NCBI GenBank assembly: GCA_014879735.1
Contig: JACSRN010000076.1
Span: 52,590 to 116,589 of the forward strand
Origin: Paracoccaceae bacterium
Lineage (GTDB): Bacteria > Pseudomonadota > Alphaproteobacteria > Rhodobacterales > Rhodobacteraceae
Reading direction: 5' to 3'
Length of the DNA: 64,000 nt
Shown here: positions 36,928-59,483 of the stretch, piece after piece
Position numbering within the stretch: the first letter of the stretch is position 1
How the letters are laid out: the number at the start of each line of letters is the position of its first letter
The notes under the pieces: generated by a model
What the model saw: the letters and a program-made list of their open reading frames with translations, nothing else
Told to the model about the DNA's origin: nothing
Database searches by the model: none
Made by a program: the position numbers and the translations under genes

Positions 36928-37881
36928 ATGATTGTGACGGCGGTTGACGTGAATGACGATGTGAAAACCCGCATTGCCTGGCTCTACTATGTCGAGGGGA
37001 TGACCCAGGACGAGGTGGCCAATCTGGTGGGGATGAACCGCTCGCGCGTGCTGCGCATCCTGGCGGCGGCCCGCCAGGACGGCACCGTCCAGATCCGCGT
37101 GACAACGCGCCTGTCGCGCTGCGTGGAACTGGAGCGGATGCTCGAGAGCCGCTGGAACCTGACGCGCGCCATCGTGGTGCCGGAACCGCAGGACCCCGCG
37201 CAGCTGCGTGCCATCATCGGCGCCGAGGTCGGCGCCTTCATGTCGCAGGCAGTGACGGCGAACATGACCATCGGTCTTGGTTGGGGCAAGACGCTGACCT
37301 CCGGCGTGCCGGCCCTGGTGCCGCGCGCGCCCGACGGGGTGAAGGTTCTGGCCATGCTGGGCGGGCTGACGCGGGTCAGCGCCATCAACCCCTCGGAATT
37401 CGCCTGGCGCGTCGCCGACCGGCTTTCCGCCGAATGCTATATGCTGGCCTCGCCGGTCTATGCGCCCGACAAGCGCACGCGCGATGCGCTGATGGCCCAT
37501 CCCGGCATTGCCGAGGTCTTTACCCGCGCCCAGTCGATCGACATGGCGGTGGTTTCGGTCGGCGACCTGACGCCGCATTCGGTATTCTCGGAATATGGCC
37601 TGCTGACGCGCGACGAAATCGCCTCGCTCGAGGCCGCAGGGGCGGTGGGCGACATCCTCTGCCACTTCATCGACGCCGAGGGCAATGTCATCGACCATCC
37701 GGTGAACGAGCGGGTGATGGCGCTTGATCCGCTGTCGTTGCGCGGCACGCGGCAGATCGTGCTGGCCTCGGGCGGCTGGCACAAGCTGACAGTCATCCGC
37801 GCCGCATTGAAGCTGCTGCGGCCGACGACGCTGATCGTCAACGAACTGGTGGCCGAGCGCCTGGCGGCCGAGCCTCGCTAG
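36928..37881 (+). CDS. SorC-family transcriptional regulator, second copy
   Basis: A 317-residue regulator. The helix-turn-helix is YVEGMTQDEVANLVGMNRSRVLRILAAAR-like at residues about 21-50, followed by the sugar-binding domain (TIGLGWGKTLTSGVPALV, MLGGLTRVSAINPSEFAW, DILCHFIDAEGNVIDHP). It is clearly a paralogue of the SorC protein at 32046, with the same landmarks in the same order. The start is uncertain: the ATG at 36928 has only a G-rich tract before it. A TTGACA (36862-36867) lies upstream. It ends with a TAG that overlaps the stop of the convergent IorB gene. Confidence 0.88.
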   Translation: MIVTAVDVNDDVKTRIAWLYYVEGMTQDEVANLVGMNRSRVLRILAAARQDGTVQIRVTTRLSRCVELERMLESRWNLTRAIVVPEPQDPAQLRAIIGAEVGAFMSQAVTANMTIGLGWGKTLTSGVPALVPRAPDGVKVLAMLGGLTRVSAINPSEFAWRVADRLSAECYMLASPVYAPDKRTRDALMAHPGIAEVFTRAQSIDMAVVSVGDLTPHSVFSEYGLLTRDEIASLEAAGAVGDILCHFIDAEGNVIDHPVNERVMALDPLSLRGTRQIVLASGGWHKLTVIRAALKLLRPTTLIVNELVAERLAAEPR

Positions 37882-57201: not shown

Positions 57202-59483
57202 GCCCTGATCGTCTCCGCCGCCTTCTCGTGCAGTCGCCGCGCCTGATCGCGCCCGCCCAGGTAGGGCAACGGCCATGCCGTTTCACTATCCTCCAAGGCG
57301 ATGGCGGCGTGAAGGGTCCAGTAGGGATCGGCCAGGTGCGGGCGGGCCAGACAGACAAGATCGGCCCGTCCTGCCAGCAGGATCGAGTTCACCTGATCAG
57401 GCTCGGTGATATTGCCCACGGCCATGGTGGCCAGCCCCGCCTCGTTGCGGATACGGTCGCTGAACGGGGTCTGGAACATCCGGCCATAGACCGGCCGCGC
57501 CTCGGCCGAGGTCTGGCCGGCCGAGACATCAAGAATGTCGGCCCCCGCCTCTGCGAACATCCGCGCGATCTGCACCGCCTCTTCGGGCGTCACGCCCTCG
57601 TGGCCCACCCAGTCGGTGGCCGAGATGCGGACCGAAAGCGGCCGGTCCGCGCCCCAGGCCGCGCGCATCGCCCGCAGCACCTCCAGCGGCCAGCGCATGC
57701 GGTTTTCAAGGCTGCCGCCATAGTCGTCGGTCCGCCGGTTCGACAATGGCGAGATGAAGGACGAGACGAGATAGCCATGCGCCGCATGCAGCTCGACCAT
57801 ATCGAAGCCGGACCGCCGCGCCATTTCGGTGGAAAGGACGAATTCCTGCCTTGTCCGGTCCATGTCGGCTCGTGTCATTGCGCGGGGGACGGCATTGCGC
57901 GGCGACCACGGGATTGCCGAGGGGGCGATGATCTCCCAATTGCCCGCAGGCAGGGGGGTGTCCGGTTCTTCCCAGCCGATCTGGGTGCTGGCCTTGCGGC
58001 CGGCATGGCCGATCTGGCAGCAGATCTTCGCCGTGGTTTCGGCATGGACGAAATCGACGATGCGCTTCCAGGCCGTCTCGTGTTCGGGGGCATAGAGGCC
58101 GGGGCAGCCGGGGGTGATCCGGCCCTCGGCCGAGGTGCAGGTCATCTCGGTATAGACCAGACCGGCACCCCCCTTGGCGCGTTCGGAATAATGGACGAAA
58201 TGCCAGTCGGTCGGGCAACCGTCGACCGCGCGGTACTGCGCCATGGGCGAGACGACGATGCGGTTCTTCAGATCCATGCCGCGCAGCCGGAAGGGCGCGA
58301 ACATCGGCGCGCGGCCGGGTTGGCCACCGGCCTGCGCCTGGAACCAGTCCTCCGCGCTGCGCAGCCAGGCCGGATCGCGCAGCCGCAGGTTTTCATGGCT
58401 GATGCGCTGGCTGCGCGTCAGCAGCGAATAGGCGAATTGCGGCGGCGGCATGTCGAGGTAGCGTTCCACCTGCTCGAACCATTCCAGGCTGTTTCGGGCA
58501 GCAGATTGCAGGCGCAGCACCTCGACGCGCCGCTCGTCCTGATAGCGCTGGAACGCCGCCTCCATCGTCGGCGCGCTGTGCAGATATTCGGCCAGCGCGA
58601 TGGCGCTGTCGAAGGCAAGCCGCGAGCCCGATCCGATGGAAAAATGCCCCGTCGCCGCGGCGTCGCCCATCAGGACGACATTCTCGTGATACCACTTCTC
58701 GCAGATCACCCGCGGAAACTGCATCCAGACCGCCGAACCGCGCAGATGCGCCGCGTTCGACATCAGGTCATGGCCGCCGAGGTGCCGTTCGAAGATCTTC
58801 CGGCAGGTCTCGACCGTCTCCTCCTTGCTCATCGTCTCGAAGCCCCAGTCGTCCCAGGTCTCGGGCAGGCATTCGACGATGAATGTCGCGGTATCGGCGT
58901 CGAACTGGTAGACATGCGCCCAGACCCAGCCATGCGCGGTCTTCTCGAAGATGAAGGTGAAGGCGTCATCGAACTTCTGATGCGTACCCAGCCAGACGAA
59001 TTTGCAGCGGCGCAGGTCGATGTCGGGGCGGAAGACCTCGGCATATTCCTTGCGGACGATCGAGTTTATTCCGTCGCAGCCAACCACAAGGTCATAGTCG
59101 CGCCGGTAGTCCTCGGCCGAGCGGAACTCGGTCTCGAACCGCAGGTCGACGCCCAGGTCGCGGGCCCGCTGCTGCAGCAGAACCAGCATCTGCTTGCGGC
59201 CGATACCGGCGAACCCGTGCCCGCCCGAAACGCTGCGCGTGCCGGCATGCACCACCGCGATATCGTCCCAATAGGCAAAGCTGTCGCGGATCGCCGCGGT
59301 CGAGACCGGATCGTTTCGCTGCATCCGGCCAAGCGCGTCGTCGGAAAGGACCACACCCCAGCCGAAGGTGTCGTTGGCACGGTTGCGTTCCAGCACCGTC
59401 ACCTGATGCTGCGGATCGCGCAGCTTCATCGAAATCGCAAAGTAGAGGCCGGCGGGGCCGCCGCCGAGGCAGAGTATCTTCAT
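57198..59483 (-). CDS. 2-aminobenzoyl-CoA monooxygenase/reductase-like fusion (salicylyl-CoA 5-hydroxylase type)
   Basis: A 761-residue fusion. Residues 1 to about 380 are a group A flavin monooxygenase (ILCLGGGPAGLYFAISMKLR, later VVLMGDAAATGHFSIGSGSR). From about 395 on there is an old yellow enzyme domain (FAPFRLRGMDLKNRIVVSPM, ELHAAHGYLVSSFISPLSNR, DDYGGSLENRMRWPLEVL). This architecture is known from 2-aminobenzoyl-CoA monooxygenase/reductase of Azoarcus evansii and from salicylyl-CoA 5-hydroxylases. It hydroxylates and reduces the aryl-CoA ring in one protein. The ATG at 59483 is chosen because it begins directly with the FAD motif. First gene of the minus operon. Confidence 0.9.
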   Translation of the reverse strand: MKILCLGGGPAGLYFAISMKLRDPQHQVTVLERNRANDTFGWGVVLSDDALGRMQRNDPVSTAAIRDSFAYWDDIAVVHAGTRSVSGGHGFAGIGRKQMLVLLQQRARDLGVDLRFETEFRSAEDYRRDYDLVVGCDGINSIVRKEYAEVFRPDIDLRRCKFVWLGTHQKFDDAFTFIFEKTAHGWVWAHVYQFDADTATFIVECLPETWDDWGFETMSKEETVETCRKIFERHLGGHDLMSNAAHLRGSAVWMQFPRVICEKWYHENVVLMGDAAATGHFSIGSGSRLAFDSAIALAEYLHSAPTMEAAFQRYQDERRVEVLRLQSAARNSLEWFEQVERYLDMPPPQFAYSLLTRSQRISHENLRLRDPAWLRSAEDWFQAQAGGQPGRAPMFAPFRLRGMDLKNRIVVSPMAQYRAVDGCPTDWHFVHYSERAKGGAGLVYTEMTCTSAEGRITPGCPGLYAPEHETAWKRIVDFVHAETTAKICCQIGHAGRKASTQIGWEEPDTPLPAGNWEIIAPSAIPWSPRNAVPRAMTRADMDRTRQEFVLSTEMARRSGFDMVELHAAHGYLVSSFISPLSNRRTDDYGGSLENRMRWPLEVLRAMRAAWGADRPLSVRISATDWVGHEGVTPEEAVQIARMFAEAGADILDVSAGQTSAEARPVYGRMFQTPFSDRIRNEAGLATMAVGNITEPDQVNSILLAGRADLVCLARPHLADPYWTLHAAIALEDSETAWPLPYLGGRDQARRLHEKAAETIRA

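What the first reader, a model, noticed from the sequence alone, without database searches (positions are those of the whole stretch)
37878..59483. One regulon that may link isatin-type ring opening to anthraniloyl-CoA degradation
A cyclase-family (isatin hydrolase-like) gene, IorAB, two FAD oxidoreductases, a dipeptide-type importer, an anthranilate-CoA ligase-like gene and a full anthraniloyl-CoA operon lie together with two MarR genes. Known: isatin hydrolases belong to the cyclase family; isatinate is 2-aminophenylglyoxylate, a 2-oxo acid; the monooxygenase/reductase fusion acts on 2-aminobenzoyl-CoA. Inference: IorAB could convert isatinate directly to anthraniloyl-CoA, bypassing free anthranilate, with the ligase serving free anthranilate. 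I know of no described pathway with this exact set.
Basis: partly seen in the sequence, partly recalled or inferred. Interest (0 to 1): 0.78.

Follow-up and report, generated by a model that had tools for sequence, protein, structure and literature searches.

The report
Isatin-to-anthraniloyl-CoA degradation gene cluster
A bacterial gene cluster places a close relative of a known isatin-opening enzyme next to a CoA-type oxidoreductase and an anthraniloyl-CoA operon, so it would likely feed ring-opened isatin straight into anthraniloyl-CoA breakdown without free anthranilate, a step that is predicted from comparative genomics and not yet tested.

Summary
The genes are real and in place. The cyclase is 75.6% identical to the assayed isatin hydrolase LaIHB and keeps its signature motifs. 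IorAB belongs to the IadAB group, markers of auxin (iad) loci with no assigned reaction in the papers seen. In 140 Rhodobacteraceae genera, all 22 genomes with isatin hydrolase are among the 23 with IorA; ABM occurs in 21 of 23 IorA genomes against 28 of 117 others. One IorA family follows two upper modules: Rieske IadCDE (auxin), or, as here, two CrtO-like flavoproteins plus a dipeptide-type importer; five of six genomes with both hold one IorA. IorAB therefore most likely acts below both, on isatinate. Five genomes, and gene clusters in Mesorhizobium, Caballeronia and Azospirillum, carry IorAB and ABM without an anthranilate-CoA ligase match, which fits direct formation of anthraniloyl-CoA, though ligase loss alone is not statistically significant and most carriers, this one included, keep a ligase. 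'One regulon' is not supported: two MarR genes, two different conserved operator-like motifs. The lower half overlaps published iad biology; the IorAB reaction and the flavoprotein upper module were not found described in the papers searched. No biochemistry was possible.

The parts
43663..44454 (-). Isatin hydrolase (cyclase family, LaIHB type), 263 aa
   Evidence: 75.6% identity over 262 aa to LaIHB (PDB 4j0n/4m8d); HSGTHFDAPH and GLAS motifs present; start codon seen
42091..43656 (-). FAD1, CrtO/CrtI-like FAD oxidoreductase
   Evidence: Pfam Amino_oxidase/NAD_binding_8, NCBIfam CrtO best but far below cut-off
41606..42100 (-). MarR1 regulator
   Evidence: Pfam MarR; closest PDB 3cjn, then 7kym
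39455..41602 (-). IorA: thiamine-diphosphate 2-oxoacid oxidoreductase alpha subunit with conserved Fe-S-type cysteines (IadA type)
   Evidence: Pfam TPP_enzyme_C; invariant cysteines in A2/A3; 87% identity to IorA of an iad locus
37878..39458 (-). IorB: POR domain plus DUF6537
   Evidence: NF006179 679.7 bits, cut-off 348
44568..44585 (-). Operator-like motif ATTTGCAAATGCATTTAA in the divergent cyclase/FAD2 promoter
   Evidence: the only hit in the window at up to 3 mismatches; within 3 mismatches in 27 of 39 such promoters, the window's included
44615..46183 (+). FAD2, CrtO/CrtI-like FAD oxidoreductase, 39% identical to FAD1
   Evidence: model pLDDT 86.8, best fold match carotenoid desaturase 4rep
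46220..47755 (+). ABC importer, family 5 solute-binding protein
   Evidence: PF00496
47866..48876 (+). ABC importer permease 1
   Evidence: PF00528
48869..49720 (+). ABC importer permease 2
   Evidence: PF00528
49711..50583 (+). ABC importer ATPase 1
   Evidence: PF00005
50580..51380 (+). ABC importer ATPase 2
   Evidence: PF00005
51476..53104 (+). Anthranilate-CoA ligase-like enzyme
   Evidence: only PDB match at E<=1e-80 is 4wv3, anthranilate-CoA ligase; orthologues sit in ABM operons
53130..53537 (-). RidA-like imine deaminase
   Evidence: PF01042
53534..53941 (-). 4HBT thioesterase
   Evidence: PF13279/PF03061
54046..55197 (-). Acyl-CoA dehydrogenase
   Evidence: PF00441
55209..56021 (-). 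Enoyl-CoA hydratase
   Evidence: PF00378
56018..56464 (-). MarR2 regulator
   Evidence: PF12802
56461..57201 (-). Short-chain dehydrogenase of the ABM operon
   Evidence: named from its sequence; no family search was run on it; a match follows ABM in most fetched relatives
57198..59483 (-). ABM: 2-aminobenzoyl-CoA (salicylyl-CoA type) monooxygenase/reductase
   Evidence: NF006101 1274 bits, cut-off 1078
59565..59581 (+). ABM-type operator-like motif (degenerate form of ATTTCAAGCTTGAAAT)
   Evidence: ATTTCAA in 64 and CTTGAAA in 62 of 76 ABM upstream regions

Best explanation
The cluster encodes a close homologue of an assayed isatin hydrolase beside a two-subunit 2-oxoacid oxidoreductase (IorAB) and an anthraniloyl-CoA operon, and IorAB is predicted to convert the ring-opened product isatinate plus CoA directly to anthraniloyl-CoA. 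Route: (1) the ABC importer likely takes up an indole-derived compound that is not identified; (2) FAD1 and FAD2, CrtO-like flavoproteins, would likely oxidise it to isatin (inferred, weakest step); (3) the Mn-type hydrolase would open isatin to isatinate (by homology to LaIHB); (4) IorAB would decarboxylate and oxidise isatinate (2-aminophenylglyoxylate) with thiamine diphosphate and Fe-S clusters and pass the acyl group to CoA, as phenylglyoxylate oxidoreductase makes benzoyl-CoA (inferred; analogy recalled); (5) ABM, SDR, ECH, ACAD, thioesterase and RidA would degrade anthraniloyl-CoA (known pathway, by homology). The ligase would serve free anthranilate. MarR1 and MarR2 likely control the two halves separately.
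For: Cyclase 75.6% identical to LaIHB; a Roseibium locus of the same layout carries one 94.3% identical. Isatin hydrolase and IorA co-occur: 22 of 22 hydrolase genomes lie among 23 IorA genomes of 140 genera (Fisher 9e-25); the odd one, G188, ends at a contig edge inside the cluster. ABM in 21 of 23 IorA genomes against 28 of 117 others (1.3e-9), and in 49 of 49 searched genomes that supplied IorA loci. Two upper modules feed one IorA family: iadD in 11 and FAD2 in 14 of 140, all within the 23; 5 of the 6 genomes with both have one IorA; iad labels are scattered on the IorA tree. Five of 70 genome entries with IorA and ABM have no ligase match, none of 28 with ABM alone. No ligase match in the fetched 20-kb cluster stretch of six Mesorhizobium loci, in the Caballeronia stretch IorA-IorB-thioesterase-ABM, or in the Azospirillum iad-ABM operon apart from iadF. 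A thioesterase follows IorB in G062, where no ABM was found, and in R. pomeroyi and Shinella. Preprint PMC12633357: C8H7NO3, the formula of isatinate, accumulates strongly only in strains overexpressing iadC-K2, built in a background deleted for genes 77-53, which includes iadA.
Against: No enzyme was assayed. 65 of 70 entries with IorA, this genome included, keep a ligase (4 of the 65 at only 56-63% identity), and ligase absence is not significantly tied to IorA (p=0.32); nor is ligase absence from the fetched ABM region (7 of 20 against 4 of 28, p=0.16). The preprint authors call iadC-K2, without iadA, the complete pathway: anthranilate was fully restored, so IadAB is not needed to make free anthranilate there. 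Isatinic acid was also detected in wild-type V. paradoxus, which has iadA (PMC9613470). Two of 23 IorA genomes lack ABM (G062, G148). ABM is within 10 kb of IorA in only 10 of 80 loci. Genomes of one family are not independent samples. IorA scores 256.5 bits against the IOR alpha cut-off of 650.9, so its family name says little about its substrate. The IorA model was poor (pLDDT 62.6). The substrates of FAD1, FAD2 and the importer are guesses.
Confidence: 0.62

Rival explanations
1. Isatinate is turned into free anthranilate (oxidative decarboxylation, or IorAB followed by thioesterase), and the ligase then makes anthraniloyl-CoA; there is no real bypass.
For: The ligase is present here and in 65 of 70 entries with IorA. 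V. paradoxus makes anthranilate without iadA. A thioesterase is in the operon and next to IorB elsewhere.
Against: Five genomes with hydrolase, IorA and ABM have no ligase match at E<=1e-90; several clusters with IorAB and ABM lack one. It would spend ATP to make a thioester that IorAB could make without it.
Confidence: 0.23
2. IorAB acts upstream on indolepyruvate, as its annotation says, giving indoleacetyl-CoA that is later oxidised to isatin.
For: Annotation and distant homology to IOR alpha and beta families.
Against: Score far below the IOR alpha cut-off. IorA accompanies the isatin hydrolase in 22 of 22 genomes and is shared by two unlike upper modules, one of which starts from indoleacetate itself.
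Confidence: 0.07
3. Two independent systems that happen to be neighbours: an isatin or dioxindole detoxification unit and a general anthranilate (ABM) operon.
For: Different conserved promoter motifs; ABM lies within 10 kb in only 10 of 80 loci, plus 2 with part of the operon; ABM occurs without IorA in 28 genomes.
Against: Genome-level association 21 of 23 against 28 of 117, and adjacency in different orders in Rhodobacterales, Mesorhizobium, Pseudovibrio, Azospirillum and Caballeronia.
Confidence: 0.12

Closest known systems
iad auxin-degradation loci (Variovorax, Bradyrhizobium, Achromobacter)
   Same: IorAB (IadA/IadB), isatin-hydrolase-type cyclase and MarR; IorA 87% identical to that of a Paracoccus saliphilus locus with iadC-G matches
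   Different: No IadD match at E<=1e-100 in this genome; two CrtO-like flavoproteins and a family 5 importer instead; hydrolase of the LaIHB type, while in two iadCDE loci it is of the LaIHA type
LaIHB and LaIHA isatin hydrolases of Labrenzia aggregata (PMC6117287, passages)
   Same: 75.6% and 47.7% identity; metal and GLAS motifs
   Different: The passages read give no pathway partner or gene cluster; here a gene context is shown
Aerobic 2-aminobenzoyl-CoA (ABM) pathway
   Same: ABM, SDR, ECH, ACAD, thioesterase, RidA and ligase
   Different: Joined to isatin hydrolase and IorAB as a possible second entry
Phenylglyoxylate:acceptor oxidoreductase of Aromatoleum (recalled; the PMC9765128 passage gives only that phenylglyoxylate goes to benzoyl-CoA)
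   Same: Aryl-2-oxoacid to aryl-CoA in one step; isatinate is 2-aminophenylglyoxylate
   Different: Different subunit make-up (recalled); no direct sequence comparison was made
Anaerobic iaa pathway to 2-aminobenzoyl-CoA (Aromatoleum; named in a passage of PMC9613470)
   Same: Ends at 2-aminobenzoyl-CoA
   Different: Described there as a distinct, anaerobic locus (iaa genes); not compared by sequence here

Membership tests
Isatin hydrolase | Metal motif HxG[T/A]HxDxPxH (PMC6117287) | tested here: met
   HSGTHFDAPH in the cyclase (motif text)
Isatin hydrolase | GLAS or GLQC signature | tested here: met
   FGLASLANLD
Isatin hydrolase | Mn-dependent hydrolysis of isatin | not testable with these tools
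   No assay possible; assayed relative 75.6% identical
Indolepyruvate:ferredoxin oxidoreductase alpha (TIGR03336) | Score above the curated equivalog cut-off 650.9 | tested here: not met
   256.5 bits; so not filed as indolepyruvate oxidoreductase
2-oxoacid:ferredoxin oxidoreductase superfamily | TPP domain in alpha, POR domain in beta, Fe-S-type cysteines | tested here: met
   PF02775, PF01558; invariant C618, C624, C630, C654, C657, C660, C670
2-oxoacid:ferredoxin oxidoreductase superfamily | CoA-acylating activity on isatinate | not testable with these tools
   Genomic context only
iad locus | IadA and IadB (exclusive markers, PMC9613470) | tested here: met
   Same IorA family as loci with iadCDE matches
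iad locus | Rieske oxygenase IadD in the genome | tested here: not met
   No match at E<=1e-100 in G000; its four Rieske-alpha matches are therefore more distant; so this is not an iad locus
iad locus | IadF and IadG | not tested
   Not searched in the window's genome
2-aminobenzoyl-CoA pathway | Bifunctional monooxygenase/reductase | tested here: met
   NF006101 1274.3 bits, cut-off 1078
2-aminobenzoyl-CoA pathway | Anthranilate-CoA ligase | tested here: met
   4wv3 is the only PDB match at 1e-80; benz_CoA_lig 356.5 bits, just under its cut-off 375.25; activity not tested
One regulon | Shared operator | tested here: not met
   The cyclase/FAD2-promoter motif in 0 of 76 ABM upstream regions

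The most novel reading that the evidence does not exclude
IorAB/IadAB is an isatinate:CoA 2-oxoacid oxidoreductase: a shared hub by which aerobic bacteria move indoles and the plant hormone auxin from ring opening straight into the CoA-bound pathway, skipping free anthranilate and the ATP of a ligase. It accepts input from interchangeable upper modules, one of them a new route to isatin run by a pair of CrtO-like flavoproteins with its own importer.
Probability: 0.53. Interest if true: 0.78.

Novelty: new variant of a known kind. Interest (0 to 1): 0.62.

Why it matters
It would give a function to IadA and IadB, exclusive markers of iad auxin-degrading loci whose reaction no paper found here assigns, and could explain why a compound with the formula of isatinate piles up in strains built without them. 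It would also place the crystallised LaIHB in a pathway, tell it apart from its LaIHA paralogue, and point to an unknown indole-type substrate used by marine and soil alphaproteobacteria. One enzyme assay would decide it.

Tried and rejected
IorA structure: model too poor (pLDDT 62.6); Foldseek listed mostly generic thiamine enzymes, with 2-oxoglutarate and pyruvate:ferredoxin oxidoreductases among them; not used as evidence of substrate. PDB sequence search with IorA: no match; with IorB: one chance-level match. FAD2 fold: carotenoid desaturase and amine oxidase types; it does not name a substrate. Homologues of FAD2 carry only general names such as phytoene desaturase family or NAD(P)/FAD-dependent oxidoreductase (best 120 of 3277 listed). 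Ligase absence as a statistic: not significant. One regulon: rejected. IAA as the substrate here: not favoured, since no IadD match in the genome, but not excluded for other entry enzymes. Families f10, f13 and f25 beside some IorA genes looked by size like Rieske subunits; their sequences look like TRAP transporters (no family search run). Three upstream cases stay unexplained: G070, G084 and G173 have IorA and hydrolase but neither IadD nor FAD2 at the cut-offs used.

Papers: PMC9613470, PMC10374108, PMC8383072, PMC6117287, PMC6221969, PMC9765128, PMC12538310 and PMC11630574 read as passages; PMC12633357 as passages plus sections 5 and 6; others only in search listings. Statements that something was not found in print rest on searches, of open-licence PMC papers only.

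Full report
WHAT IS THERE. The window lies in a Rhodobacteraceae-type genome of 4.39 Mb in 201 contigs (nearest relatives). From 37878 to 59483 it carries three gene groups. Group 1, minus strand: cyclase, FAD1, MarR1, IorA, IorB. Group 2, plus strand, divergent from group 1: FAD2, a family 5 (dipeptide-type) ABC importer of five genes, then a CoA ligase. Group 3, minus strand: ABM, a short-chain dehydrogenase, MarR2, enoyl-CoA hydratase, acyl-CoA dehydrogenase, thioesterase, RidA.

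THE CYCLASE IS AN ISATIN HYDROLASE BY HOMOLOGY. It starts at 44454 and has 263 aa. It is 75.6% identical over 262 aa to LaIHB of Labrenzia aggregata and 47.7% to LaIHA. It has the metal motif and the GLAS motif that PMC6117287 (passages) gives as the signature. A Roseibium locus of the same layout (L079) has a cyclase 94.3% identical to LaIHB, so LaIHB very likely comes from a cluster of this kind. In two loci with iadCDE matches (L015, a 106-aa piece at a contig end, and L027) the cyclase is 78-79% identical to LaIHA instead. L. aggregata's two isatin hydrolases thus most likely belong to two different pathways. This is not a strict rule: the Paracoccus saliphilus iad locus (L157) has a cyclase next to IorAB as well.

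IORAB. IorA has the thiamine domain and invariant Fe-S-type cysteines; IorB has the POR domain and DUF6537. IorA scores 256.5 bits on the indolepyruvate oxidoreductase alpha model, whose cut-off is 650.9, so the name should not be taken as the substrate. It belongs to the IadA group: 87% identical to IorA of a Paracoccus saliphilus plasmid locus annotated with Rieske dioxygenase subunits, reductase, AMP-binding protein and thiolase. In PMC9613470 (passages) iadA and iadB are exclusive markers of iad loci; the passages give no function.

CONTEXT IN RELATIVES. Of the 80, 40 carry cyclase and FAD2 with IorA, 37 of them also FAD1 and the solute-binding protein, and 54 a cyclase at 60% identity or more (layouts). 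ABM at 45% identity or more lies within the fetched flanks (10 kb or less) in 10 of 80, and other genes of the ABM operon in two more (L035, L054); many loci are cut by contig ends.

GENOME-LEVEL ASSOCIATION. In 140 Rhodobacteraceae genomes, one per genus and at least 90% complete: IorA at 62% identity or more in 23; isatin hydrolase at E<=1e-30 in 22, all among the 23; the other, G188, has a contig that ends within the cluster. ABM in 49 (47 over cut-off, plus G099 and G175 just below it): 21 of 23 with IorA, 28 of 117 without (recounted). Fisher 9e-25 and 1.3e-9; these treat genera as independent, which they are not. Four more genomes (G057, G158, G169, G178) hold an IorA relative at 54-55% and were counted as without. 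Of the genomes behind the 80 IorA loci, 50 loci were given to the search, 49 genomes could be searched (L048 was not held), and all 49 have an ABM match over nearly its whole length (46 over cut-off, three at 1030-1054 bits; one, G045, with an in-frame TGA).

TWO UPPER MODULES, ONE LOWER PATHWAY. IadD (E<=1e-100) occurs in 11 of 140 and FAD2 (E<=1e-130) in 14 of 140, all within the 23 IorA genomes. Six have both; five of these six have one IorA and only G174 has two (in G088 the gene is split over two contigs). Four of the 23 have neither at these cut-offs: G188 (its contig ends after a FAD1 match), G070, G084 and G173. This genome has FAD2 and no IadD match. On an 89-row IorA tree (short search, many open forks) the six iad rows need five changes, and the window's nearest rows include both FAD and iad loci. 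An enzyme that follows both an auxin module and a flavoprotein module should act below the point where they meet. Since the hydrolase goes with it in all 22 genomes, that point is most likely isatinate.

EVIDENCE FOR ANTHRANILOYL-COA AS THE PRODUCT. First, the ABM association above. Second, ligase-less cases. The window's ligase has one PDB match at 1e-80, anthranilate-CoA ligase 4wv3, and its orthologues are a regular part of ABM operons in genomes without IorA (24 of 28 fetched ABM regions, two of the other four being 4-kb contigs; with IorA 13 of 20; p=0.16). All 28 genomes with ABM and no IorA have it somewhere. Of 70 entries with IorA and ABM (69 genomes, since G040 and G084 are the same), 65 have it at E<=1e-90 (four of these at 56-63% identity) and five do not: G026 and G028 (Mesorhizobium), G034 (Rhizobium tubonense), G142 and G174. 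In three of the five (G026, G142, G174) only the best 20 of 21 to 40 candidates were scored; completeness is told only for G142 (95) and G174 (100). The difference is not significant (p=0.32). In six Mesorhizobium loci (L139, L145, L146, L148, L149, L150) the importer operon runs on into ABM-SDR-MarR2-ECH-ACAD-RidA with no ligase match in the 20-kb stretch, while L152 has one and L144 is cut; four of these six genomes have the ligase elsewhere. L154, with cyclase, FAD1, MarR1, IorAB and a different ABM lineage in one row, and L147 also lack it there; the genome of L154 has one 33 kb away. A Caballeronia plasmid has IorA-IorB-thioesterase-ABM-cupin-fumarylacetoacetate hydrolase and, further on, a cyclase, with no ligase match in 26 kb. 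An Azospirillum plasmid has IorA-IorB-iadC-D-E-F-SDR-ABM-SDR-ECH-ACAD-thioesterase-RidA, its only AMP-ligase there being iadF. For these plasmids the rest of the genome was not searched. Third, a thioesterase follows IorB in Ruegeria pomeroyi, Shinella and the ABM-less genome G062, as expected if IorAB makes a thioester; it also fits rival 1.

PUBLISHED DATA. In preprint PMC12633357 (passages, sections 5 and 6; [quoted passage not shown] C8H7NO3 is the formula of isatinate and C7H7NO that of 2-aminobenzaldehyde (my reading; the paper names neither in that passage). PMC9613470 gives that deletion as genes 77-53, with iadA as gene 72 and iadC as gene 70, so the strain lacks iadA and presumably iadB. 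A block at isatinate is what loss of IadAB should cause. Against this: anthranilate was fully restored in that strain and the authors call iadC-K2 the complete pathway, so IadAB is not needed for anthranilate; overexpression alone could also cause the build-up; and isatinic acid was detected in wild-type cultures too (PMC9613470).

REGULATION. The promoter between cyclase and FAD2 holds ATTTGCAAATGCATTTAA, the only such site in the window and present within three mismatches in 27 of 39 such promoters, the window's included. Sites with up to two mismatches also lie upstream of the cyclase or MarR1 (54 to 238 nt from the match start) in 11 loci without FAD matches, and 21 nt from iadC in L080. 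ABM promoters have another motif, ATTTCAAGCTTGAAAT (ATTTCAA in 64 and CTTGAAA in 62 of 76 upstream regions, some genomes being in twice); none of the 76 holds the first motif within three mismatches. Two motifs and two MarR genes suggest two switches, not one regulon. Which MarR binds which site was not shown.

WHAT STAYS OPEN. The starting substrate and the reactions of FAD1 and FAD2. Both resemble CrtO and CrtI, and CrtO-type enzymes turn a ring CH2 into a ketone (recalled), which is the chemistry oxindole to isatin would need; this is a guess. A family 5 importer suggests something larger than isatin (inference).

VERDICT. Observation confirmed; interpretation partly supported.

Noticed in passing
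window 59717-61261: A trimethylamine methyltransferase (MttB) family gene lies just beyond ABM on the other strand.
   Followed up: no
window 27108-37881: A sugar-catabolism-like group: thiamine E1 alpha and beta, a lipoyl/E3-binding/abhydrolase protein, a DRL-type oxidoreductase, PfkB kinase, FAD-dependent and zinc dehydrogenases and two proteins with the sugar-binding regulator domain PF04198.
   Followed up: no
L158 5084-17203; L160 7908-17285: Ruegeria pomeroyi and Shinella plasmids pair IorAB and a thioesterase with a cupin, fumarylacetoacetate hydrolase, carbon-nitrogen hydrolase and Asp/Glu racemase, perhaps another fate of the same product.
   Followed up: partly
L159 12001-14349: A Variovorax plasmid from linuron-contaminated soil carries IorA, with an IorB-like match, near two IS1071 elements and without a cyclase match in the stretch.
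   Followed up: no
L024: A contig labelled Blastopirellula (Planctomycetota) carries a Sulfitobacter-like copy of the block, nested among Roseobacter rows on the IorA tree; possibly a mis-binned contig.
   Followed up: no
L038 about 1-6400: The importer genes of Hoeflea olei give extra partial matches (two for permease 2, two for ATPase 1), as if duplicated or broken.
   Followed up: no
G181: One genome has three cyclases (83, 70 and 52% identical to the window's), both upper modules, and a single IorA.
   Followed up: partly
L090, L094 (G099, G175): A second, divergent ABM lineage (46% identity) stands without most of the usual operon partners.
   Followed up: no
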